Positions 1,035-10,285 of a stretch of DNA of 64,000 nt are shown one piece after another. Below the pieces are notes generated by a model. That model was not told the DNA's origin. It searched no databases and worked only from the letters and a program-made list of their open reading frames with translations. Position 1 is the stretch's first letter, and every line of letters starts with the position of its first letter. The DNA is taken from assembly GCF_006539145.1 (NCBI RefSeq), contig NZ_BJML01000003.1:62001-126000 (forward strand). The letters run 5' to 3'. The stretch comes from Microbacterium testaceum (GTDB taxonomy: Bacteria > Actinomycetota > Actinomycetes > Actinomycetales > Microbacteriaceae). The position numbers and the translations under genes are program-made.

Positions 1035-2105
1035 GTGCGAGACGAGACCCCCGACGACGGTCGCCCACCGGCCCGTGCGGCCACGCCCCGCCAGGCCGGA
1101 GCCGCCCCCACCATCCACGATGTGGCCGCGGCCGCGGGGGTGTCGAAGTCGGTGGTCTCGCGGGCGCTCTCCGGGGCGTCCGGGGTCGCCGCGCACACCG
1201 TCGACCGCGTCCGGCGGGCGGCGACGGAGCTCGGTTACGTCGCCAACGCGCACGCGCGGGGGATGTCGGCTCACCGGAGCCACACCCTCGGCGTCTTCGT
1301 CCGTGACGCCGCGACGCCGTTCTACGGTCACCTGCTGACCGCGTTCCAGGAGCAGGCGGCTGCTCGCGGGTACCGGGTCGTCACCGCGACCGGGGCGGGA
1401 TCCTTTTCCGTGGACGACGAGCGCCGCGCCCTCGAGACACTCGTCGCGCTGCGGGTGGAGGGACTGATCGTCTGCAGCGGCGCGCTCCCCGTCGAGGACA
1501 TCACGCCCTTCGCGCGGCGTATCCCCGCGGTCGTCGCGGGGCGCCCGGAGGAGGACCCGACGATCAGCAGCGTGTACTGCGACGAGGTGGGCGGTGGCCG
1601 CGCCCTCGCCGATCACGTGGCCGACCTCGGGCATCGCAGGGTCGCGGTGATGACCTTCACCCCGGTCTCGTCGATCACCCAGTCGCGGCGCACGCACGCG
1701 ATGGCCGAGCGCCTGCGGGAGCGCGGCGTCCACGTCGTCACTCTGAGCGGTGACGATGCCGGACCGGGCTTCGACGGGGCCGACGCGATCGTCGCGGGCG
1801 TCCTCGGGGCCGGCGGGGTCACCGCCTTCATGGCGCCGAGCGACGCGTGGGCGGTGGCGGCCCTCGAGGCGCTGCGCGTGCGCGGGGTCGCCGTGCCCTC
1901 GGAGATGTCGGTGACGGGTTACGACGGCGTCACGCCGTTCATGACGTCACTGCTGGGTCTGACGTCGTGGCGCCAGCCGCTGCGGACGATCGGCCGACTG
2001 TCGGTCGACGCGGTCGTCGATCAGATCGATGGACTCGCGACCACGGTGACGCACCACGCGATCGACGGAGAACTGGTTCCCGGGCGTACGGCCGCCGCCC
2101 TCTGA
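1035..2105 (+). CDS. LacI-family transcriptional regulator
   Basis: A 356-residue repressor. The N-terminal helix-turn-helix is at residues 26-47 (TIHDVAAAAGVSKSVVSRAL), and a periplasmic-binding-protein-like effector domain fills the rest, ending with the usual SVTGYDG and R-Q-P-L elements. A tail of about 25 residues precedes the HTH, slightly longer than usual; GTG 1035 is preferred because it fits a leaderless promoter. Downstream are two palindromes with the central CpG typical of LacI operators, at 2173 and 3882. They flank a 2H phosphoesterase, a phosphatase and an ABC importer, so these are the likely targets. No copy is seen before this gene itself. The effector is unknown. Confidence 0.93.
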   Translation: MRDETPDDGRPPARAATPRQAGAAPTIHDVAAAAGVSKSVVSRALSGASGVAAHTVDRVRRAATELGYVANAHARGMSAHRSHTLGVFVRDAATPFYGHLLTAFQEQAAARGYRVVTATGAGSFSVDDERRALETLVALRVEGLIVCSGALPVEDITPFARRIPAVVAGRPEEDPTISSVYCDEVGGGRALADHVADLGHRRVAVMTFTPVSSITQSRRTHAMAERLRERGVHVVTLSGDDAGPGFDGADAIVAGVLGAGGVTAFMAPSDAWAVAALEALRVRGVAVPSEMSVTGYDGVTPFMTSLLGLTSWRQPLRTIGRLSVDAVVDQIDGLATTVTHHAIDGELVPGRTAAAL

Positions 2106-2172: not shown

Positions 2173-2190
2173 ATAGGGAACGTTCCCTAT
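2173..2190. promoter_or_regulatory. LacI-type operator, copy 1 (18-bp perfect palindrome)
   Basis: ATAGGGAACGTTCCCTAT is a perfect palindrome 20 bases upstream of the 2H phosphoesterase start. The central CG and the length are typical of LacI-family operators. A second copy sharing 16 contiguous bases sits at 3882-3897 before the ABC transporter. Binding by the adjacent LacI protein is inferred from proximity and from the repeat, not demonstrated. Confidence 0.85.
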
Positions 2191-2210
2191 CGGCATCACG
2201 GAGAGTCCGC

Positions 2211-2867
2211 ATGAACGACCACATCGCCCACAAGCTGCCCCGAGACGACAGCGATCCCTTCCGCTACGGCATCTATCTGCGTCCCGACGCGCAGACCTGC
2301 CGCGCGGTGACCGCGGTGACCGACCAGCTGCGCGCGCAGTACGGCTTGCTCTCCGCGGGCGCGTTCCCGCCGCACGCCACCCTCGTGGGCAGCCAGCCGT
2401 TCGGGTTCTCGGAGCCCGCGGTCATCGGCGCGCTGACCGACCTGCTCGATGGCCGCGCGGCCTTTCCCGTGCACAATGCCGGCGTCCGGGCGCAGGGTCG
2501 GGGCTACGTCTACGACGTGAGCGAGAACCCCGAAGGCTCGGTCAACGACGACCTGGTGGGCCTGGCCCGTGACATCGAGGCGACGGTCGCCCCGTTCCGC
2601 TCCCCGATGAACAATCCCCTGCCCAACGACTTCGTCCCGGAGCTCTACCGCGGGCACCTCTCGCTCGCCTCGCACGACCTGTACGTGCGTCCCGATCTCT
2701 ACGAGGAGGTGGGGGAGTTCATCCGAGAGCTCGCCGTCCCCGTGCCCGGTGGCTTCTCGGGACGCACGGTGGTGATGTACCGCACCTCGAGCCCCGACTG
2801 GTCGGGACGCTGGTGGCAGACGATGACGTGGGAGCACGTGCGCACCTGGGCTCTCGCCGGCGCGTAG
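2211..2867 (+). CDS. 2H phosphoesterase superfamily protein (2'-5' RNA ligase-like)
   Basis: A 218-residue cytosolic protein with the two H-x-T/S signatures of the 2H superfamily, HATLVG at His55 and HLSLAS at His149. Family members hydrolyse cyclic or linear phosphodiesters such as 2',3'-cyclic phosphates and ADP-ribose cyclic phosphate. GGAGA at 2200-2204 precedes the ATG at a good distance. The gene has its own LacI-type operator at 2173-2190. Its neighbours are a phosphatase of the inositol monophosphatase family and a UgpB-like importer. From that context I infer a catabolic step opening a phosphodiester taken up from outside. The true substrate cannot be read from the sequence. Confidence 0.8.
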   Translation: MNDHIAHKLPRDDSDPFRYGIYLRPDAQTCRAVTAVTDQLRAQYGLLSAGAFPPHATLVGSQPFGFSEPAVIGALTDLLDGRAAFPVHNAGVRAQGRGYVYDVSENPEGSVNDDLVGLARDIEATVAPFRSPMNNPLPNDFVPELYRGHLSLASHDLYVRPDLYEEVGEFIRELAVPVPGGFSGRTVVMYRTSSPDWSGRWWQTMTWEHVRTWALAGA

Positions 2868-2880
2868 CCCGATCCGAAGA

Positions 2881-2912
2881 GTCCGGATGCCGCACGGTCG
2901 CGGCATCCGGAC
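2881..2912. terminator. bidirectional hairpin terminator
   Basis: GTCCGGATGCCG pairs perfectly with CGGCATCCGGAC around a short loop, with one extra closing C-G pair. It lies between two convergent stop codons (2867 and 2917) and so can serve both genes. The stem is built from one GGATGCC and one GGCATCC heptamer. Confidence 0.8.
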
Positions 2913-2916
2913 GCTC

Positions 2917-3753
2917 TCACTGCCCGGCCGGCATCCACTGCCCGGACAGGGCGCGCAGGCGTCGAATGAGCACTCCGTGCTCTCCGCCCGCTCCCTCCGC
3001 GACGTAGTCGAGGCTCTCCTGGGCGCGAGCGACCTCGACGCCGGAGCGGAAGCCCGTGTACGTGCCACCGGCCCGTTCGAGGATGTGGGCTCCGGCGGCC
3101 ACGTCCCAGGGGTGGGTATCGAAGCCCATCGTGGCGTCCGCCCATCCGGCCGCGACGTGCGCGAGGTTCAGCGCCCCGCTGCCGGTGCTGTGGTGGTGCT
3201 GGTACGTGTGCGTGATCTCGGCGAGCAGGTCGAAGGCGCCCTCGCCCAGGAGGTCGACGTCGTGCTGTCCGGGAAAGCTCGTGAGCAGGGTGGAGAGTTC
3301 GGCGGGGCCGGACGCCGATCGCATCGGGACCCCGTTCACGTGGGCGTGCTCCCTGCCGGCCGAGAACATGTTGTCTGCGACGGGGTCGAACACGACGCCC
3401 GCGACGACCTCGCCGTCGAGCTCGGCGGCGATCGAGATGCACCAGTAGGCGAGACCGCGCGCGAAGTTGGCGGTGCCGTCGATCGGGTCGATGATCCATC
3501 GCAGGGGTGCGTCGCCCGAGCTGCCGGTCTCTTCGCCCAGGATCACCGAACCGGGTGCGCCGTCCTGGAGGATCCCGGCGATGGTGGCCTCGGCCGCTCT
3601 GTCGTGGATCGTCACGACGTCGTGCACGTCGCGCTTGAACGACACGCTCATGTCGGAGCGGAACGCGGCGAGCAGTGCCGGCGCGGCGGATCTCGCGGCC
3701 CTCTCGGCCAGGGCGCGAAGGTCGTCGGGGGAGGGGGAGGGGTGCGTGGTCAT
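2917..3753 (-). CDS. inositol monophosphatase-family phosphatase
   Basis: A 278-residue Mg2+-dependent phosphatase with the full family signature: GEE at 73-75, DPIDGT at 89-94 and WDVAAG at 216-221. Family members dephosphorylate inositol phosphates, histidinol phosphate, PAP or sugar phosphates, and these motifs do not separate the options. It is transcribed away from the ABC transporter from a shared 160-bp intergenic region that holds the second LacI-type operator, so it is probably controlled with the importer. The context suggests it removes the phosphate left after the 2H enzyme acts; that is inference. HisN or CysQ-like housekeeping roles are alternatives, made less likely by the location. 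Confidence 0.88.
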   Translation of the reverse strand: MTTHPSPSPDDLRALAERAARSAAPALLAAFRSDMSVSFKRDVHDVVTIHDRAAEATIAGILQDGAPGSVILGEETGSSGDAPLRWIIDPIDGTANFARGLAYWCISIAAELDGEVVAGVVFDPVADNMFSAGREHAHVNGVPMRSASGPAELSTLLTSFPGQHDVDLLGEGAFDLLAEITHTYQHHHSTGSGALNLAHVAAGWADATMGFDTHPWDVAAGAHILERAGGTYTGFRSGVEVARAQESLDYVAEGAGGEHGVLIRRLRALSGQWMPAGQ

Positions 3754-3881
3754 GGTTCTCCTCGGGGGTCAGGGGGATTGATTCAGGTGCTCGTGAACGC
3801 CGCGTGAACGCTCGGCGACCGCTCGCCGGTCGCCTTGACCTCGTCTCTCGCGGTGTCGCAGAGTGAGTCCGTCATCAAAAA

Positions 3882-3897
3882 AGGGAACGTTCCCTAT
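3882..3897. promoter_or_regulatory. LacI-type operator, copy 2
   Basis: AGGGAACGTTCCCT is a perfect 14-bp palindrome; with the next two bases AT it matches copy 1 over 16 bases. It lies 17 bases before the ABC permease start and inside the divergent promoter region of the phosphatase, so one bound repressor could silence both directions. Confidence 0.85.
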
Positions 3898-3913
3898 GAC
3901 GGAAAGGTAGCCG

Positions 3914-4858
3914 ATGTCGCTCTCGACACTCGACCGCCGGCCGACGCTCGCCGACCGTCGTCGGCCGGCTTCGACCCTGGCCTGGCGGCGCGCCGACCGA
4001 CGCGTGGGTGCCGCTCTGATGGTTCCGGCGCTCGCGGTCTTCGCCGTCTTCGTCTTCTTTCCCCTCGGCCGGGTCGTCTGGCTCAGCACCCAGGGAACCG
4101 ACATCTTCGGCCAGGCCGCCGGGTTCGTGGGGACGAAGAACTTCGCGACGATCTTCACCGATCCCCAGTTCGGCGACACGCTGTGGCGGACGGCCGTGTT
4201 CTGCGTCGCGGTCGTGGTCGGTCGCATCGTCGTCGGGCTGCTCATCGTCATCCCGTTGACGGCGAAGCTCCGCGGCATCCGCGTCTTCCGCGCCCTGCTG
4301 ACCTCGCCCCTCGTGGCCTCGGTCTCGGTGGCCTCGGTCGCCTTCGCCGCGATGCTCGCTCCGGCCGGCGGGCTGGTCAACTCCGTGATCGCGCGCTTCG
4401 GGGGCACGCCGGTGCCGTGGCTGACCAGCACCCAGTGGGCCATGCCGAGCGTGATCGCCGTCACCGTGTGGGGATCTCTCGGATTCACCGTGCTGCTGCT
4501 GCTCGGGGCCTTCGGCGCGATCGATCCCGACGTGATCGAGGCGGCCCACCTCGACGGGGCGGGTCCCCTCCGCACGCTCTGGTCGATCTCTCTGCCGCTG
4601 ATCACGCCGACCCTGTTCTTCATCGTGGTCACCGGTGCCGTCGAGGCGCTCACGACGTTCGGGCAGATCCAGATCCTCACCGGCGGCGGCCCGGCGAACT
4701 CGACGACGACGCTGGTCTACACGATCTATCAGGCGGCGTTCGGGGCGGGGAGCGCCAACTTCGGCATCGCCGCGGCAGTGGGCGTCGTGCTGTTCCTGCT
4801 CGTGCTCGGCCTCTCGCTCGTCCAGTTCGGCATCCTCGAGAAGCGAGTGAACTACTGA
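3914..4858 (+). CDS. ABC sugar/glycerophosphate transporter permease (MalF/UgpA-like)
   Basis: A 314-residue polytopic membrane protein. After a basic N-terminus there are about six hydrophobic segments, and the EAA loop reads IEAAHLDGAGPLRTLWSI near residues 212-230, the site that docks the ATPase. GGAAAGG at 3901-3907 serves ATG 3914. The stop overlaps the start of the second permease by one base (TGATG), so the two are translationally coupled. No ATPase gene is present; actinobacterial systems of this class often share an MsiK-type ATPase encoded elsewhere. The solute-binding protein downstream resembles UgpB, which points to a phosphorylated or glycerol-linked solute. Confidence 0.9.
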   Translation: MSLSTLDRRPTLADRRRPASTLAWRRADRRVGAALMVPALAVFAVFVFFPLGRVVWLSTQGTDIFGQAAGFVGTKNFATIFTDPQFGDTLWRTAVFCVAVVVGRIVVGLLIVIPLTAKLRGIRVFRALLTSPLVASVSVASVAFAAMLAPAGGLVNSVIARFGGTPVPWLTSTQWAMPSVIAVTVWGSLGFTVLLLLGAFGAIDPDVIEAAHLDGAGPLRTLWSISLPLITPTLFFIVVTGAVEALTTFGQIQILTGGGPANSTTTLVYTIYQAAFGAGSANFGIAAAVGVVLFLLVLGLSLVQFGILEKRVNY

Positions 4859-5694
4859 TGGCGCGGCCGCTGTCCGTCCGCGCGCGTCTGCGGAGCACCC
4901 TTCTCTACGTCTGGCTCGTCGTGGCGGTGACCGTGGTGTGCTTCCCGCTCTACTACGTCTTCGAGGGCGCGCTCACGCCGACCGCCTGGCTCGACGAGGG
5001 CCTCGAGGGTCTTCTGCCCATCCACCTGACGCTCGACAATGTGATCCGCGCCACCCAGGTCATCCCGCTCGGACACCAGTTCCTCAACAGCGTCGTGGTG
5101 ACGCTGGTGCAGACCTTCTTCCAGGTCGCGATCGGCATCGCCACCGCCTACGCTCTCGTCTTCTGCGGGCTGCGGGGCACGCGTGCCCTCTTCCTGCTGA
5201 TCCTGTCGAGCATGATGGTGCCGGGCGAGACGATCCTCATCGCGAACTATCTGACGATCTCGTCGTGGCGGCTGATCGACACCCTGCCGGCGGTGTTCCT
5301 GCCGTTCCTCGCCTCGGCGCTGAGCATCTTCCTGTTCCGGCAGGCGTTCCTCAGCTTCCCGGGGGAGCTGCGCGACGCCGCCCTCCTCGACGGTGCGGGG
5401 CACGTCCGCTTCATCCGGTCGATGCTGCTGCCGATCGTGCAGCCGACGCTCATCTCGGTGACCCTCGTGAGCGCGACCGCCGCGTGGAACGGGTTCTTCT
5501 GGCCGTTGCTGGTGACCAACTCGCCCGAGAACCGCACGGTGCAGGTCGGTATCGCCCAGCTCTCCAGTGCCGAGGCGGCCGACGTCGGCGTCGTACTCGC
5601 CGGCGCGGCCATGGTCACCCTTCCGGTTCTCGTCCTCGTGCTGCTCGCGCAGCGCTTCCTCGCCGGCGGGATCACCGCCGGCGCTCTCAAATAA
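4858..5694 (+). CDS. ABC sugar/glycerophosphate transporter permease (MalG/UgpE-like)
   Basis: A 278-residue membrane protein with about six transmembrane segments and the EAA-type loop ELRDAALLDGAGHVRFI near residues 171-186. A longer in-frame reading upstream exists, but ATG 4858 is chosen because it overlaps the stop of the first permease (TGATG) and yields the expected MARPLSVRAR N-terminus and family length. It forms the heterodimeric channel with the product of the preceding gene. The operon continues 26 bases later with the binding protein. Confidence 0.9.
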   Translation: MARPLSVRARLRSTLLYVWLVVAVTVVCFPLYYVFEGALTPTAWLDEGLEGLLPIHLTLDNVIRATQVIPLGHQFLNSVVVTLVQTFFQVAIGIATAYALVFCGLRGTRALFLLILSSMMVPGETILIANYLTISSWRLIDTLPAVFLPFLASALSIFLFRQAFLSFPGELRDAALLDGAGHVRFIRSMLLPIVQPTLISVTLVSATAAWNGFFWPLLVTNSPENRTVQVGIAQLSSAEAADVGVVLAGAAMVTLPVLVLVLLAQRFLAGGITAGALK

Positions 5695-5720
5695 GACCCG
5701 ACAGAAAGAAACCCGAGCCC

Positions 5721-7067
5721 ATGTCTCTGCGCCCCCGCACCACGATCGCGGCGACCGCCGCGGGAGCCGTCCTCCTTCTCGCCCTCGCCGGGTGCACGGC
5801 ATCCGGATCCTCCCCCGGAGCCGACTCCGGCCCCGTGACCCTCCAGTTCTGGCACGAGATGAGCGGACCGGCGGCCACCGAGCTCGACGCCCTCGTGTCG
5901 CAGTTCAACAGCGATCACGACGGCGAGATCACCGTCGAGTCCTCGTTCCAGGGGTCGTACGCCGACGCCCAGACGAAGTACACCGCCGCCGTGCAGTCGG
6001 GCACGACGCCCGACGTGCTGATGATGAACGACATCTCGACGGGCTTCATGACCGATTCGAAGAAGACCGTCCCCCTGTCGACCTTCACCGCGACCGACAC
6101 CTCGTTCTCTCTCGACAGCTTCCCCCCGGCGGTCAGCGCGTACTACGGCGACGGCGCGGGCGGGCTCGCCGCCATGCCGTTCGCGGTGTCGCAGCCGGTG
6201 ATGTACCTCGACCGCGACCTCGTGACACGCTCGGGGCTGAACCCCGACTCCCCGCCGCGCACGCTCGCCGAGGTGGCCTCGTGGGCCGAGAGGATCCACG
6301 CGGCGACGGGTGCCTCGGGCCTGACGATGAACATGTCGGACTCGTGGATGATCGAGCAGATGTCGGCCGCGGGCGGGGTGGACTTCTGCACCCCCGACAA
6401 CGGTCGCGGCTCCGACCGCGTCAGCGGACTGCAGCTCACCTCGCCGACGCAGGTGGGCTTCATGCAGCGACTGCAGAAGCTGTTCCAGGACGGCTCGATG
6501 CTCAACCCCGGCACCGACAACAGCGCGATGGTCTCGGCCTTCGCGAGCGGCAAGGTGGGCATCATGCTCACCTCGACGGGCGCCTACACGACGGCCGATC
6601 CGAAGAAGACCGCGTCGACGGTCGCTGCCTTCCCTTCCACCGCCGAGTCCGACGACGCGGGTGTGGTCATCGGCGGCAACGCGCTCTGGATCTCGGGTGA
6701 CGGACACTCCGACGCGCAGCAGCGGGCGGCCTATGCCTTCGTGAGCTTCCTGCACTCGGCCGAGGTGCAGGCGGCGTGGGCGAATGCCACCGGGTACCTC
6801 GCATCGAACACGGGGGCGGCCTCCACCGCGGCCGGCGCGGCCTCGCTCGCCGACCCGAACGTCAAGGCCATGGTCGACCAGCTCGCGAACACGCCGGCGT
6901 CGAACGCCGCGGCGGGCTGCCGCACGGGCGCTTTCCCCTCGCTGCGATCGACCGTCATCGGGGCGTTCACCCAGGTCGCCGAGGGTGCCGACGTGACCTC
7001 GACCATGTCGGATGCCGAGACGAAGGCGGCGTCGCAGATCGCCGCGTACAACACGGCGGCGGGCTGA
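5721..7067 (+). CDS. UgpB-like extracellular solute-binding lipoprotein
   Basis: A 448-residue lipoprotein. The signal peptide ends in the lipobox LALAGC with Cys25, the lipidation site. The mature protein is of the family 1 binding-protein type: FWHEMSGP near the start and a TTPDVLMMNDISTGFMTDSKK stretch, which recalls UgpB, the glycerol-3-phosphate/glycerophosphodiester receptor. ATG 5721 gives the signal peptide at the right place. It is the third gene of the importer operon and is followed by a hairpin terminator. The substrate class (phosphodiester or sugar) is inferred from this resemblance and from the phosphoesterase and phosphatase next door. Confidence 0.9.
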   Translation: MSLRPRTTIAATAAGAVLLLALAGCTASGSSPGADSGPVTLQFWHEMSGPAATELDALVSQFNSDHDGEITVESSFQGSYADAQTKYTAAVQSGTTPDVLMMNDISTGFMTDSKKTVPLSTFTATDTSFSLDSFPPAVSAYYGDGAGGLAAMPFAVSQPVMYLDRDLVTRSGLNPDSPPRTLAEVASWAERIHAATGASGLTMNMSDSWMIEQMSAAGGVDFCTPDNGRGSDRVSGLQLTSPTQVGFMQRLQKLFQDGSMLNPGTDNSAMVSAFASGKVGIMLTSTGAYTTADPKKTASTVAAFPSTAESDDAGVVIGGNALWISGDGHSDAQQRAAYAFVSFLHSAEVQAAWANATGYLASNTGAASTAAGAASLADPNVKAMVDQLANTPASNAAAGCRTGAFPSLRSTVIGAFTQVAEGADVTSTMSDAETKAASQIAAYNTAAG

Positions 7068-7152: not shown

Positions 7153-8208
7153 GTGACGGACGACCTCTCGCCCTCGGACGCGTCCCGCCGGTCTCGCCGG
7201 AGGGCCGGTGTCGGTGACCCGGACGCATCCCCCACGCGCCTCTACGCCCTGCTGACTCCGGAGGCCCGTGACCTGTACGAGCTGGTCCCCGGCGCGCAGG
7301 AGCTGTTCCGACCGACCGCGGCCTCGTCCTCAGTGCTGCGGCGAGGGCTCCGGCAGGACGACGCGTTCCGCAACCTGCTCCGGGCGGCGATGCAGGAAAC
7401 GGCGGAGCCGCGCGGGTGGCAACGCCACGAATGGTCCGACGAGGAGGTCGCTCGCGCGGCCGAGGACCCGCAGCTGCTCGCGGCAGCCCGGGCGATGTCG
7501 AAACGGAACGCACGGGTCGACTGGCGCGCGACGTGGAAGAAGCGCCGCCAGCGGGAGACGGCGGTGCTGGCCGTCTTCACGTACTCGCTGATGGCCATCC
7601 CCGCAGCCCTCCTGCTCAACATGGCGTGGCTCGCGGGCGTGGGCGTCGTGGGCGTGCTCGCCGTGGTGGGGTATCTGCTCGTCCGTCGGCGGGCCGAGAA
7701 CCGGCCGGCCCCCGCTCCTCATCCGCTCCCCGCCCTCAGCGATCCCCCCACGGGCGACGGCGTGCCTCGACCTCTCTTCGTCGTCGAGCGCGCCCCCTCG
7801 CAGCATCTGATCGCGCGCGGCACCGGTCTCGTCTTCCTGGCGGGCGCCGTCGTCCTCGCGATCGGGGAGATCATCGAGGGCGGTCCGCTCGCCGCTGTCG
7901 GGGTGACCGTGTGGCTGGGCACCCTCGGTGTTCTCGGCGCGATCATCTTCCTCTGGGCGCTGTCCGCCGGGCGCGCGCGCATCGTCGGCTTCGACGATCA
8001 CCTGGTCGTCCGCCCGGGACTCCGCCGGTCGCGGGTGGTTGCGGCATCCGAGATCGCGGAACTCTCGCTGCTGTCGGGCGGTCGGCTTCGGGGCGCGGAC
8101 GCGCGGGGTCGCCGATTGTTCGAGGCGATGAGCGTGTACGACGACTTCCCCGACCTCGTGGCGTGGCTCGAGGCCAAGACGCCGCGGCGGTGGGCCGACA
8201 TCGGATGA
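7153..8208 (+). CDS. membrane protein of unknown function
   Basis: A 351-residue protein I do not recognise. A soluble Arg-rich N-terminal part (to about residue 135) is followed by a hydrophobic pair near 140-180, a Pro-rich linker, and a second hydrophobic pair near 225-275. The C-terminal portion (IVGFDDHLVVRPGLRRSRVVAASEIAEL) reads like a small PH-like or DUF-type domain found after membrane anchors. It starts with GTG and has no evident ribosome binding site; a GAGGAT six bases upstream could be the -10 of a leaderless promoter, but it is a poor match. It sits alone between the importer operon and crcB. No function is assigned. Confidence 0.75.
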   Translation: MTDDLSPSDASRRSRRRAGVGDPDASPTRLYALLTPEARDLYELVPGAQELFRPTAASSSVLRRGLRQDDAFRNLLRAAMQETAEPRGWQRHEWSDEEVARAAEDPQLLAAARAMSKRNARVDWRATWKKRRQRETAVLAVFTYSLMAIPAALLLNMAWLAGVGVVGVLAVVGYLLVRRRAENRPAPAPHPLPALSDPPTGDGVPRPLFVVERAPSQHLIARGTGLVFLAGAVVLAIGEIIEGGPLAAVGVTVWLGTLGVLGAIIFLWALSAGRARIVGFDDHLVVRPGLRRSRVVAASEIAELSLLSGGRLRGADARGRRLFEAMSVYDDFPDLVAWLEAKTPRRWADIG

Positions 8209-8237
8209 CGCCGCTGAGGTGCGTCGGGCCGCGGGCG

Positions 8238-8243
8238 TAGGGT
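8238..8243 (+). promoter_or_regulatory. -10 hexamer TAGGGT of a leaderless promoter (crcB 1)
   Basis: TAGGGT lies exactly six bases before GTG 8250, with TGAGGT 17 bases further upstream as a candidate -35. The second crcB gene at 18058 has the same arrangement, including TGAGG at the -35 position. Confidence 0.55.
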
Positions 8244-8249
8244 GGCGCG

Positions 8250-8621
8250 GTGAGCATGTGGCGGGATGTGGGCCTCGTCGCCGTCGGCGGCGCGATCGGT
8301 ACGGCCGTACGCGCCGGTCTCACCCTGGCGCTCGGCGAAGACCTGGGCCCGGCCCTCGTGCCGCTGATCAACGTCGTCGGGGCGTTCGCGATCGGCATCC
8401 TGTACGGCTGGAGAGCACGGATGCCGGAATCCTCGCGTGCGCAGCGCGTGCAGCTGTTCATCGGGACCGGCATCCTGGGCGGGTTCACCACCTACAGCTC
8501 GCTCGCCGTCGAGTCGGCCGACCTCGGCCTGCTCTGGTGGGGGGTGGCGACGGTCGTCGTCGGGACGGCGGCGGCCTGGGGCGGCGTGCTGCTCGGCCGT
8601 GGCGGACGGGCTTCGCGCTGA
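8250..8621 (+). CDS. crcB: CrcB/Fluc fluoride channel subunit 1
   Basis: A 123-residue four-helix membrane protein. The family signatures are an Asn in the second helix region (PLINVVGAFAIG) and GTGILGGFTTYSS in the third. Fluc channels export fluoride as dimers; many Gram-positives use two different subunits encoded side by side. Here the second subunit gene is about 9.8 kb away at 18058. The GTG start agrees with a leaderless promoter. I saw no convincing fluoride riboswitch upstream. Confidence 0.93.
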   Translation: MSMWRDVGLVAVGGAIGTAVRAGLTLALGEDLGPALVPLINVVGAFAIGILYGWRARMPESSRAQRVQLFIGTGILGGFTTYSSLAVESADLGLLWWGVATVVVGTAAAWGGVLLGRGGRASR

Positions 8622-8645
8622 CGCTTGTCGAACCCGGCGAGAAAA

Positions 8646-8661
8646 TGGTACAAATGTGCCA
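8646..8661. promoter_or_regulatory. imperfect palindrome upstream of the PfkB operon
   Basis: TGGTACAAATGTGCCA has 7-base arms with a single mismatch around AA, about 50 bases before ATG 8712. A related sequence, CTGTACGTTTGTGCCA, occurs at 14270-14285 between the TetR and esterase genes, which makes it a candidate operator. The cognate protein is unproven. Confidence 0.45.
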
Positions 8662-8711
8662 CTTACCGTCGTGGGTTCGCCGCGCCGGTCACCCGACCCG
8701 GAGGTTCGACG

Positions 8712-9641
8712 ATGAACGCCGCCCCCTCGATCGTCACGCTCGGAGCCCACGTGCTCGACACGATCGTCCAGCCCGTCGATGAGATCCCCGAGGGGCAGGG
8801 CTCGCTCCTCGTCGACGAGATCGTGATGTCCGCAGCGGGACCCGCCGGCGGCACCGCGCTCGTGCTCAACAAGCTCGGCGCGCGCGTGGTCACGAGCGGG
8901 GCCGTGGGCGACGACGTCGCCGGACGCGTGCTGGTCGGCCTGCTCGGCGACGCCGGCATCGACGTGTCGAACCTGCGCACCGACGAACTGCCGACCTCGG
9001 CATCCGTCCTCCCCATCCGCTCCGACGGGTCGCGACCGGCGCTCCACGTGGTCGGGGCCAACGCGCTCGCCGCCGACGTCGTGCCCTGGGACGCGCTCGC
9101 CGCCGCCGACCACGTCCACGTCGGAGCGCCCGAGCTGCTCGGTCCCGAGAACGTCATCGAGATCCTGGAGTACGCCCGTCGGCACGGAGCGACGACGTCG
9201 CTCGACTTCCTCATCGGCGGCGACCCCGCGTTCTACGCGCTCATCGAGCCCCTGCTCGCGCACACCGACTACGTGCTCCCCAACGCCGAGCAGGCCATGG
9301 GCTGGACCGGCGCCGACGACCTGCCCGCCGCCGCCCGCGCCCTGCACGCGGCGGGAGCAGCGGTCGTCGCGTGCACCAACGGCGGCGACGACATCGTGGT
9401 GGTCGACGGCGGCGACCTCGAGTTCGTCCCCATCGTGCCCGCGGAACCGGTCGACACCAGCGGCGGCGGAGACGCCTTCTCGGCCGGCTTCGTCTTCGCC
9501 AAACTCCGCGGGTGGTCCTCGCGCGACGCCGCGCGCTTCGGATCGGCCACCGCCGCACAGGTCGTCGCCGGCGTGGGTACCGATCACGGCGCGTACGACG
9601 CGGCATCCATCGATGCTCTGCTCTCGGCGGGAGTGCTGTGA
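8712..9641 (+). CDS. PfkB-family carbohydrate kinase
   Basis: A 309-residue ribokinase-fold sugar kinase. The C-terminal PfkB signature DTSGGGDAFSAGF is intact and holds the catalytic Asp and the anion hole; a GG-rich segment near residues 43-47 (AGPAGGTA) corresponds to the N-terminal motif. ATG 8712 is chosen over an upstream in-frame start because GGAGG lies at 8700-8704. The stop overlaps the aldolase start (GTGA), and the aldehyde dehydrogenase follows directly. The gene order kinase, aldolase, dehydrogenase suggests a sugar is phosphorylated, cleaved to a triose phosphate and an aldehyde, and the aldehyde oxidised. The sugar is unknown. Confidence 0.88.
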   Translation: MNAAPSIVTLGAHVLDTIVQPVDEIPEGQGSLLVDEIVMSAAGPAGGTALVLNKLGARVVTSGAVGDDVAGRVLVGLLGDAGIDVSNLRTDELPTSASVLPIRSDGSRPALHVVGANALAADVVPWDALAAADHVHVGAPELLGPENVIEILEYARRHGATTSLDFLIGGDPAFYALIEPLLAHTDYVLPNAEQAMGWTGADDLPAAARALHAAGAAVVACTNGGDDIVVVDGGDLEFVPIVPAEPVDTSGGGDAFSAGFVFAKLRGWSSRDAARFGSATAAQVVAGVGTDHGAYDAASIDALLSAGVL

Positions 9642-10285
9642 TCGCGAGCGGTGTGCGAGAAGCCGTGGCGGACGCCTGCCGTTCTCTCGCCGCGCAGGGC
9701 CTGGTCAAGGGGACAGCGGGCAACGTCAGCGTGCGCGTGGACGGGGGCATCGCGATCACGGCGACCGGAGTGGTCTTCGCCGAGGCGGTCGCCGACGACG
9801 TCGTGATCGTCGACGGCGAGAAGAGAGTCGTCGAGGGGGCGCTCGCCCCGAGCTCCGAGCTCGACCTGCACCGCGCGGCCTACGCCGACGAGGCCGTCGG
9901 GGCCGTCGTGCACACGCACGCCCCCGCGGCGATCGCCCTCTCACTCGTCTCTGACCGACTGCCCTGCGTGCACTACCAACAGCTCGCCCTCGGGGGCGAG
10001 ATCGAGGTGGTGCCCTTCTCGGTCTTCGGCTCGGCCGAGCTCGCCGCGGCCACGGGCGGCGCCCTCGCCGCAGCCAATGCCGCGATTCTCGCCCACCACG
10101 GCGCCGTCACCACGGGCCGAGACCTCGCCGACGCGGTGACGAACACCGCCCTGCTCGAGTGGGCGTGCGACATCTACCTGCGCGCGCGAGCGGTGGCGGT
10201 GCCCGCCGAACTCAGCCCCGAGCAGCAGGCCGCGGTGCTCACCGCCGCGGTCTCGACCGGGTACGGACAGAAGCACGGAGCGTGA
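9638..10285 (+). CDS. class II aldolase (fuculose-phosphate aldolase/AraD-like)
   Basis: A 215-residue zinc-dependent aldolase or epimerase of the class II aldolase/adducin fold. Visible signatures are GNVS near residue 28, SSELDLHRAAY, the zinc ligands HTH (VVHTHAP), and a third zinc His in ILAHHG. GTG 9638 overlaps the kinase stop by 4 bases, which fixes the start and implies coupling. In this context retro-aldol cleavage of the kinase product is more likely than epimerisation. Confidence 0.88.
   Translation: MIASGVREAVADACRSLAAQGLVKGTAGNVSVRVDGGIAITATGVVFAEAVADDVVIVDGEKRVVEGALAPSSELDLHRAAYADEAVGAVVHTHAPAAIALSLVSDRLPCVHYQQLALGGEIEVVPFSVFGSAELAAATGGALAAANAAILAHHGAVTTGRDLADAVTNTALLEWACDIYLRARAVAVPAELSPEQQAAVLTAAVSTGYGQKHGA

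What the first reader, a model, noticed from the sequence alone, without database searches (positions are those of the whole stretch)
2173..7067. Twin LacI operators delimit a phosphodiesterase-phosphatase-importer module
A perfect 18-bp palindrome (ATAGGGAACGTTCCCTAT) before the 2H phosphoesterase recurs, with 16 bases identical, between the IMPase-type phosphatase and the ABC importer whose binding protein resembles UgpB. A LacI gene sits just upstream. Importer plus phosphodiesterase plus phosphatase reads as a dedicated route: take up a phosphodiester or cyclic phosphate, open it, remove the phosphate. I know of no characterised pathway with this exact set. The importer lacks an ATPase gene, so it probably borrows a shared one.
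Basis: partly seen in the sequence, partly recalled or inferred. Interest (0 to 1): 0.72.

Follow-up and report, generated by a model that had tools for sequence, protein, structure and literature searches.

The report
Bacterial module for eating sugar phosphodiesters
A gene set probably switched by one repressor lets some leaf and soil bacteria take in a phosphate-bridged molecule, probably a sugar phosphodiester, cut it and use the sugar; this resembles a recently described way in which a plant pathogen feeds itself, but is built from different parts.

Summary
An 18-bp perfect palindrome (2173-2190) and a copy with 17 of 18 bases identical (3880-3897) flank a 2H phosphoesterase, an IMPase-type phosphatase and an ATPase-less UgpB-type importer next to a LacI gene. 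Their shared 14-mer occurs nowhere else in the 3.59-Mb genome. Across 366 genomes of the genus it occurs 26 times: 25 inside this module, once near a broken 2H relic. The module recurs, rearranged, across Actinomycetota.

The binding protein keeps UgpB's four phosphate-coordinating and three diol-binding positions (Glu replaced by Asp) but lacks its tryptophan clamp, so a larger phosphodiester is the likely ligand. The partner enzyme swaps between loci: IMPase, HAD phosphatase, or GalT (with or without GalE) and no galactokinase. That fits a hexose-1-phosphate product.

The closest characterised system is Xanthomonas XanT-XanP (Science, December 2025), where a 2H enzyme cuts the galactose phosphodiester xanthosan to Gal-1-P; the agrocinopine acc system has similar logic. 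Best reading: a LacI-controlled route for a sugar phosphodiester, plausibly a galactose-1-phosphodiester. The substrate is inferred, not shown.

The parts
1035..2105 (+). LacI-family repressor; helix-turn-helix TIHDVAAAAGVSKSVVSRALSG
   Evidence: Pfam LacI PF00356 E 3.4e-13 and Peripla_BP_3; a LacI relative lies within 9.5 kb of the 2H gene in 47 of 57 public loci
2173..2190 (.). operator 1, ATAGGGAACGTTCCCTAT, 20 bp before the 2H start codon and 67 bp after the lacI stop
2211..2867 (+). 2H phosphoesterase, 218 aa, motifs H55-A-T57 and H149-L-S151
   Evidence: PF13563 E 0.002, below its cut-off; model pLDDT 91.5, best solved match Arabidopsis Appr>p cyclic phosphodiesterase 1fsi E 1.5e-8, then LigT, Usb1, AKAP18
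2917..3753 (-). IMPase-type phosphatase, 278 aa, with DPIDGT and WDVAAG motifs; converges on the 2H gene
   Evidence: PF00459 E 1.2e-48; sequence; both motifs in 16 of 16 relatives from the public loci
3880..3897 (.). operator 2, AAAGGGAACGTTCCCTAT, in the divergent gap, 16 bp before the first permease start and 126 bp from the phosphatase start
3914..4858 (+). ABC permease, UgpA-like
   Evidence: PF00528; best NCBIfam UgpA E 5e-50, below its equivalog cut-off
4858..5694 (+). ABC permease, UgpE-like
   Evidence: PF00528; best NCBIfam UgpE E 4e-35, below cut-off
5721..7067 (+). solute-binding protein, UgpB-like, with a lipoprotein-type N-terminus; Y80/S157/S285/Y359 match the phosphate site and D104/G319/R409 the diol site of UgpB
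   Evidence: PF13416 E 5.5e-37; NCBIfam UgpB E 2.5e-52, below cut-off; pocket mapping; model best match 6x84 E 5.2e-28

Best explanation
This is a LacI-repressed route for using a phosphodiester, most likely a sugar phosphodiester. (1) The binding protein captures a phosphodiester through a UgpB-type phosphate and diol site. (2) Two UgpA/UgpE-like permeases import it, powered by a shared MalK/MsiK-type ATPase encoded elsewhere. (3) The cytoplasmic 2H phosphoesterase cleaves the phosphodiester to a phosphomonoester, most likely a hexose-1-phosphate such as galactose-1-phosphate, as XanP does with xanthosan. (4) The IMPase-type phosphatase removes the phosphate; in sister loci a HAD phosphatase takes its place, or a dedicated GalT with or without GalE uses the sugar-1-phosphate directly. 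(5) LacI, when free of inducer (probably the phosphosugar), sits on both palindromes and shuts off the 2H gene and the phosphatase/importer divergon. Shown here: the parts, the operator's uniqueness and conservation, the co-occurrence, the pocket residues and the enzyme swaps. Inferred: every binding and catalytic step and the identity of the substrate. My odds: LacI-controlled phosphodiester uptake and breakdown 0.85; hexose-1-phosphate product 0.5; xanthosan itself about 0.2.
For: Operator: 2 exact sites in the own genome; 13 of 366 genus genomes have it, 26 sites in all, 25 in the module and the 26th near a broken 2H relic. In a 149-genome draw, operator and binding protein (E<=1e-60) occur in the same 6 genomes; 2H occurs in these and in one more, G028. 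Conservation: 57 public loci; 40 hold importer plus 2H, 39 of those with LacI. SBP stop and 2H start overlap by 4 bp in 12 of 25 adjacent pairs. Pocket: all four phosphate and all three diol positions of Phaeobacter UgpB retained (Glu to Asp), Trp clamp lost; 45 of 52 binding-protein rows from the loci keep the full set; 0 of 13 other PF13416 binding proteins of the own genome do. Enzyme swap: of the 40 importer loci 13 have the IMPase, 23 a HAD, 2 galT, 2 none of these; never two kinds together. Three Microbacterium genomes carry an extra galT inside the module, galE too in two of them, no galK; all 9 genomes tested have a separate galT-galK pair. IMPases can hydrolyse D-Gal-1-P (PMC4288329 and the preprint PMC12324327, passages). 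XanP is a 2H enzyme making Gal-1-P from a sugar phosphodiester (PMC12807533). Shared ATPase: one PF17912 match against 14 PF13416 matches in the genome.
Against: No biochemistry. The IMPase and the dedicated galT go with different 2H clades, so the Gal-1-P inference is carried over to the window from relatives. 23 of 57 public loci, and 15 of the 40 importer loci, lack an exact GGGAACGTTCCC within 9 kb, mostly Streptomyces and relatives with a HAD gene. In the own genome two-mismatch sites are more frequent than the control (39 sites in all against 8), so other regulators may use related sites. 8 of 63 2H proteins have Gly/Ala in place of Ser/Thr in the second motif. Three public loci use an unrelated binding protein (L101, L104, L106). 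Clavibacter loci show only LacI plus 2H. UgpB kinship equally suits glycerophosphodiesters. Many loci are close relatives and some genomes appear twice, so the counts are not independent. XanP's sequence is not held here, so kinship to it is untested.
Confidence: 0.6

Rival explanations
1. The substrate is a glycerophosphodiester such as glycerophosphoinositol: UgpB-type import, 2H cleavage at the diol next to the phosphate to inositol-1-phosphate (directly or through the 1,2-cyclic phosphate), then IMPase to inositol.
For: Binding protein and permeases are closest to Ugp. The diol trio that holds glycerol in UgpB is kept, with Asp as in the glycerophosphocholine-binding M. tuberculosis protein. 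IMPase is the classical inositol-1-phosphate phosphatase (known biochemistry).
Against: It does not explain why sister modules carry a second galT (and galE) where others have a phosphatase, nor why two of four HAD replacements scanned match glucose-1-phosphatase best (below its cut-off). I did not annotate all neighbours: the gene families shared by nine or more loci are only the module's own, and one locus has a Gfo/Idh-type oxidoreductase after the binding protein with weak likeness to inositol dehydrogenase, which would suit this rival.
Confidence: 0.25
2. Salvage of RNA breakdown products: dinucleotides or 2',3'-cyclic nucleotides are imported, opened by the 2H enzyme and dephosphorylated.
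For: The best fold matches of the 2H model are RNA or cyclic nucleotide enzymes (Appr>p CPDase, LigT, Usb1). A dinucleotide-binding protein shares UgpB's phosphate site and is among the structural matches of the binding protein. Plant IMPases have slight activity on 2'-AMP (3.6 and 9.6% relative rates).
Against: GalT/GalE association and the glucose-1-phosphatase-like HADs point to sugars. No nucleoside gene is among the families shared by nine or more loci; rarer neighbours were not annotated.
Confidence: 0.1
3. An ordinary oligosaccharide importer under LacI control whose 2H and phosphatase neighbours are unrelated housekeeping genes.
For: CUT1 importers with LacI and a shared ATPase are common in Actinobacteria (general knowledge).
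Against: 2H travels with the importer through complete rearrangement of gene order, with 4-bp gene overlaps in 12 of 25 pairs; phosphate-site residues kept in 45 of 52 binding-protein rows and in 0 of 13 other PF13416 binding proteins of the same genome.
Confidence: 0.04
4. The palindromes are transcription terminators or another element, not LacI operators.
For: The copy at 3882-3895 read leftwards is followed by a T run and scores as terminator-like.
Against: The copy at 2173 is not listed as terminator-like and has no T run. In rearranged loci the site keeps lying before 2H, importer, MgtC, HAD or lacI genes, and all 13 genus genomes that have it carry this LacI.
Confidence: 0.03

Closest known systems
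Xanthomonas XanR-XanT-XanP xanthosan uptake and use (PMC12807533, Science Dec 2025)
   Same: A transporter and a 2H phosphoesterase with HxT and HxS motifs, beside a regulator gene, use a phosphodiester as nutrient; the product Gal-1-P suits the IMPase/HAD/GalT partners seen here.
   Different: Gram-negative; TonB-dependent XanT, not an ABC importer; putative ROK family XanR, whose knockout did not significantly alter lesion length; no dedicated phosphatase or galT is mentioned in the parts I read. Here a LacI gene, a UgpB-type importer and swappable downstream enzymes. Sequence kinship of the two 2H proteins not tested.
Agrobacterium agrocinopine acc system (AccR, AccA-E, AccF, AccG; PMC4526662)
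   Same: Repressor plus binding-protein importer plus phosphodiesterase plus (putative) phosphatase for a sugar phosphodiester; the phosphosugar product is the repressor's ligand.
   Different: AccF and AccR belong, as I recall, to other protein families (GDPD-type and DeoR-type; not from a call); AccA binds a pyranose-2-phosphate motif. No 2H enzyme is mentioned in the passages read.
Ugp glycerol-3-phosphate/glycerophosphodiester importers (E. coli and Phaeobacter UgpB, M. tuberculosis UgpB)
   Same: Closest solved relatives of the binding protein; phosphate quartet and diol trio conserved (Glu to Asp).
   Different: No UgpC-type ATPase gene in the cluster, no Trp clamp, a LacI gene, and a 2H enzyme in place of a GDPD (recalled as UgpQ).
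2H phosphoesterase superfamily: plant Appr>p CPDase, LigT, Usb1, AKAP18
   Same: Fold and twin H-x-T/S motifs.
   Different: The enzymes among those act on RNA ends, cyclic nucleotides or ADP-ribose cyclic phosphate (general knowledge); this family lies in nutrient-import loci and scores below the Pfam cut-off for PF13563.

Membership tests
2H phosphoesterase superfamily | two H-x-[ST] motifs | tested here: met
   H55-A-T57 and H149-L-S151; 55 of 63 rows (window included) keep both, 8 have Gly/Ala in the second
2H phosphoesterase superfamily | 2H fold | tested here: met
   model pLDDT 91.5, Foldseek 1fsi E 1.5e-8, TM 0.58/0.69
2H phosphoesterase superfamily | Pfam 2_5_RNA_ligase2 cut-off | tested here: not met
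   PF13563 18.7 bits against a cut-off of 27; the superfamily is broader than this one model
LacI family repressors with palindromic operator | LacI HTH plus sugar-binding domain | tested here: met
LacI family repressors with palindromic operator | palindrome with central CG tied to the regulator across genomes | tested here: met
   13 of 366 genus genomes, 25 of 26 sites in the module; 34 of 57 public loci have the 12-mer within 9 kb, 23 do not
LacI family repressors with palindromic operator | direct binding and induction | not testable with these tools
   needs gel shift or ITC
UgpB-type phosphate-ester binding proteins | two Tyr and two Ser coordinating phosphate | tested here: met
   Y80, S157, S285, Y359
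UgpB-type phosphate-ester binding proteins | Trp pair clamping glycerol (G3P-specific UgpB) | tested here: not met
   M205 and S208 at those positions; so not a G3P-type UgpB
UgpB (NCBIfam equivalog NF008211) | score above curated cut-off | tested here: not met
   177.9 bits against 411
Inositol monophosphatase family | IMPase family score and motifs | tested here: met
   PF00459 166.4 bits against 27; DPIDGT and WDVAAG seen in the sequence
Xanthosan utilisation (XanT-XanP) | 2H enzyme with HxT and HxS motifs | tested here: met
   same motif types (PMC12807533)
Xanthosan utilisation (XanT-XanP) | TonB-dependent transporter XanT | tested here: not met
   ABC importer instead; not filed as a XanTP system
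Xanthosan utilisation (XanT-XanP) | sequence kinship to XanP WP_014501370.1; activity on xanthosan | not testable with these tools
   sequence not held; no assay
Agrocinopine acc system | importer, phosphodiesterase, phosphatase and repressor genes in one locus | tested here: met
   likeness of gene roles only
Agrocinopine acc system | homology of AccA, AccF, AccG, AccR to the window proteins | not tested
   those sequences were not compared; not filed as an acc system

The most novel reading that the evidence does not exclude
Leaf-dwelling and soil Actinobacteria own a second, independently assembled xanthosan-type system. They import a galactose-1-phosphodiester, such as the one Xanthomonas makes infected plants produce, with a UgpB-type ABC importer, cut it with a XanP-like 2H enzyme, and use the Gal-1-P through a dedicated GalT/GalE or an IMPase/HAD phosphatase. 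In effect they take the pathogen's private nutrient, or exploit a wider natural pool of sugar phosphodiesters.
Probability: 0.22. Interest if true: 0.87.

Novelty: new variant of a known kind. Interest (0 to 1): 0.68.

Why it matters
In what I read, sugar phosphodiesters as bacterial nutrients are described for two cases, agrocinopine and, since December 2025, xanthosan. A conserved actinobacterial module with a defined operator, a phosphate-ester binding protein and three interchangeable ways to use the product suggests that such compounds are a wider nutrient class. It gives a directly testable binding protein, enzyme and repressor. If leaf commensals can use xanthosan, they compete with Xanthomonas for its private food, which bears on plant health.

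Tried and rejected
Window-only significance of the 14-mer: with 3 mismatches, 2 hits against 1.97 expected is uninformative, so I moved to whole genomes. 2H against PDB sequences found nothing meaningful, by single protein or by profile; only the fold comparison worked. Pfam matched the 2H protein only below its cut-off and NCBIfam not at all. A class-wide profile search found 2 of 394 genomes, the own genome being one: the module is rare and patchy. The terminator reading of the second palindrome was rejected because the first has no T run and the site follows the module across rearranged loci. Downstream window genes (7153-9641) were considered as module members and dropped: they stay adjacent in L034, L042, L044 and L046 but were not found beside the module in L035, L036, L043 or L047. 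Literature searches for this gene set or its pathway showed no description of it in the listings that I saw: the top 15 of 4,456, 15 of 5,364, 12 of 18 and 10 of 10 papers that met the terms. 'Xanthosan' is in one paper of the held library, which is open-access only. The first control alignment had four minus-strand binding proteins wrongly oriented; it was redone. Genes around the 57 loci were grouped but only a part was named by family search, so rarer partners may have been missed.
Full report
WHAT IS THERE. The window lies in a genome of 3,590,404 bases in 28 contigs (window = contig 3, 62001-126000); the closest named 2H relative is from Microbacterium testaceum StLB037 at 97%. Gene order: lacI (1035-2105 +), operator 1 (2173-2190), 2H phosphoesterase (2211-2867 +), convergent IMPase-type phosphatase (2917-3753 -), operator 2 (3880-3897) in the divergent gap, two permeases (3914-4858, 4858-5694 +) and a binding protein (5721-7067 +). 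Operator 1 is a perfect 18-bp palindrome. Operator 1 ends 20 bp before the 2H start and operator 2 ends 16 bp before the first permease start, where repressor binding would block transcription (inference).

THE OPERATOR IS SPECIFIC. The 14-mer AGGGAACGTTCCCT occurs twice in the genome and its reversed control 0 times. Allowing R/Y ends and two mismatches there are 39 sites (control 8), of which the 37 others all have two mismatches; related weak sites are thus more frequent than the control, perhaps belonging to other regulators. In 366 genomes of the genus the 14-mer occurs in 13, at 26 sites. 25 sites lie in a module with 2H and importer genes (two short contigs of G299 show only part of it). 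The 26th, in G073, lies about 1.3 kb from a 2H relic with stops inside that is 75% identical over 87 residues to the 2H of locus L037. In the 149-genome draw (same handles in both), operator and binding protein (E<=1e-60) share the same six genomes, all with 2H; a seventh, G028, has two distant 2H genes without the exact site. If genomes were independent that overlap would have probability 7e-11; they are related, so read it only as strong association.

THE MODULE IS CONSERVED AND REARRANGED. A GTDB scan with the 2H alignment gave 57 loci. 47 have LacI, 44 PermA, 45 PermB and 42 a binding protein within 9.5 kb of the 2H gene; 40 have PermA plus binding protein, 39 of these also LacI. Several contigs are short, and some genomes also appear among the genus genomes, so the counts are not independent. 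Orders differ completely: LacI-2H/IMPase/permeases-SBP in Microbacterium, Agreia and Curtobacterium; HAD-LacI-permeases-SBP-2H in Streptomyces and relatives; SBP-permeases/MgtC-LacI-2H in other Microbacterium and Paenarthrobacter; SBP and two 2H genes around the permeases in Leifsonia and M. jejuense. In 12 of 25 adjacent SBP-2H pairs the genes, with starts as my script called them, overlap by four bases. The 12-mer GGGAACGTTCCC occurs 66 times in the 1,019,642 bases of these loci against 0 for the reversed palindrome; 34 of 57 loci, and 25 of the 40 importer loci, have it within 9 kb of the 2H gene. The 23 without it are mainly Streptomyces and relatives with a HAD gene, in many of which the LacI recognition region differs (SKSVVSRVVSG against SKSVVSRALSG), the Leifsonia/M. 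jejuense type with imperfect copies, cut contigs and 2H genes without importer. A plasmid of Paenarthrobacter sp. OM7, predicted conjugative, carries the module with two operators. Patchy presence (13 of 366 in the genus for the operator, 2 of 394 for the 2H profile in a class-wide draw) fits an accessory nutrient system.

THE BINDING PROTEIN HAS A PHOSPHATE-ESTER POCKET. Its nearest solved relatives are UgpB proteins by sequence (6x84, 4aq4, 9lff) and by fold (model pLDDT 88.2; 6x84 E 5.2e-28, then 4aq4 and 9lff). PMC12718374 (passages) lists for Phaeobacter UgpB the phosphate ligands Tyr64, Ser143, Ser266, Tyr342, the diol ligands Glu88, Gly303, Arg393 and a tryptophan clamp 188/191, and says that the two Tyr and two Ser are kept in glycerophosphocholine- and dinucleotide-binding relatives. 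Mapping through the HMMER alignment gives Y80, S157, S285, Y359 (all kept), D104, G319, R409 (kept, Asp for Glu as the paper reports for the M. tuberculosis protein) and M205, S208 (clamp lost). 45 of 52 binding-protein rows from the loci keep all seven positions (near-copies included). The seven exceptions are one unrelated neighbour, three of an unrelated type, one truncated and two with single changes. 0 of 13 other PF13416 binding proteins of the own genome have the quartet or the trio (in one search four of these were mis-oriented; alignment of such distant proteins is rough). So an ordinary oligosaccharide is unlikely and a phosphodiester larger than glycerol-3-phosphate is likely (inference).

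THE 2H ENZYME. HxT and HxS/T motifs are both intact in 55 of 63 rows. The model (pLDDT 91.5) matches Arabidopsis Appr>p cyclic phosphodiesterase, LigT, Usb1 and AKAP18. Pfam PF13563 matches below its cut-off. In one Streptomyces/Microbacteriaceae group (8 of 63) the second motif is HLG, HLA or HIG, so catalysis there is doubtful or different.

WHAT FOLLOWS THE 2H STEP SWAPS. Of the 40 importer loci, 13 have the IMPase, 23 a HAD-family phosphatase and 2 a galT; two have none of these, and no locus has two kinds (only homologues of the queried genes are counted). For two of four HAD proteins scanned, the best NCBIfam match is glucose-1-phosphatase PRK09456 (recalled as YihX); all matches to that family are below its cut-off. 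Three Microbacterium genomes (G035, G079, G355) have a second galT right after the binding-protein gene, with galE between in two of the three. Each has its ordinary galT beside the only galK match elsewhere. The other six genomes tested have one galT each. The module GalTs keep the HPH motif. On the Paenarthrobacter plasmid a galE follows the 2H gene. IMPase proteins are known to take D-galactose-1-phosphate (Arabidopsis IMPL1, PMC4288329, passages; Dictyostelium Gal1Pase, PMC12324327, a preprint, passages). One product would make all partners sensible: a hexose-1-phosphate, most simply Gal-1-P. The tree puts the IMPase rows in one Microbacteriaceae group and the galT rows in another well-supported group, so carrying the Gal-1-P reading over to the window is an inference from relatives.

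ATPASE. One PF17912 (MalK-type) match in the whole genome against 14 PF13416 matches supports a shared ATPase, known in Actinobacteria as MsiK (recalled).

AGAINST WHAT IS KNOWN. PMC12807533 (outline, text parts 1-3 of 5, figure legends) describes Xanthomonas XanP as a 2H phosphoesterase with H99xT101 and H204xS206 that hydrolyses xanthosan, bis-(1,6)-cyclic dimeric galactose-phosphate, to Gal-1-P, beside TonB-dependent XanT and the putative ROK-family regulator XanR. PMC4526662 (passages) describes the agrocinopine system: AccA importer, AccF phosphodiesterase, AccG putative phosphatase, AccR repressor whose ligand is the phosphosugar. The window module works like these, but it is not a member of either by parts: ABC importer instead of XanT, LacI instead of ROK, and a 2H enzyme where agrocinopine use has AccF. 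My searches showed no paper on this gene set in the listings seen (15, 15, 12 and 10 papers) of an open-access library.

VERDICT. A real, conserved module that is most likely LacI-controlled and uses a phosphodiester; the substrate is probably a sugar phosphodiester with a hexose-1-phosphate product; xanthosan is the boldest candidate. New variant of a known kind.

Noticed in passing
L049:8241-8254 and 9578-9838 (G073:C10): A lone exact operator about 1.3 kb from a broken 2H relic 75% identical over 87 residues to the 2H of L037: possibly remains of a lost second module.
   Followed up: partly
L125 (NZ_CP123580.1, Paenarthrobacter sp. OM7): The module with two operators sits on a plasmid predicted to be conjugative, with galE after the 2H gene and a Gfo/Idh/MocA oxidoreductase beyond the binding protein.
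   Followed up: partly
L060, L062, L063, L069, L070, L072: Curtobacterium loci carry a second LacI-type gene (31-34% identical to the queries) right after the 2H gene.
   Followed up: no
L065, L066, L067, L068, L071: Clavibacter loci keep only lacI, one operator-like palindrome and 2H in the stretch held; no importer match nearby.
   Followed up: no
L098, L099, L100, L102, L103, L105; L101:5836, L106:10004: 2H proteins with Gly/Ala in place of the Ser/Thr of the second catalytic motif (8 of 63); in L101 and L106 a second 2H copy is present.
   Followed up: partly
L037, L039, L048, L090, L091, L097, L098-L100, L102, L105, L106: An MgtC/SapB-family membrane protein recurs in the module (9 of 57 public loci); its role is unexplained.
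   Followed up: partly
L101, L104, L106 (and L048): A variant with an unrelated binding protein lacking the phosphate quartet, yet with 2H genes on both sides of the permeases and a HAD phosphatase.
   Followed up: no
L088, L089, L093: Thermomicrobiales/Chloroflexi loci have a 2H gene with no LacI or importer match in the stretch held; L089 and L093 group with the galT-type clade in the tree, L088 was not in the tree.
   Followed up: no
own genome, 37 sites listed: Two-mismatch variants of the operator are more frequent than for the reversed control (39 sites in all against 8), perhaps operators of other LacI-type regulators.
   Followed up: no
window 7153-9641: Uncharacterised 351-aa gene, a gene I take for crcB (recalled, no family search) and a PfkB kinase follow the module in L034, L042, L044, L046 only; judged not part of it.
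   Followed up: partly
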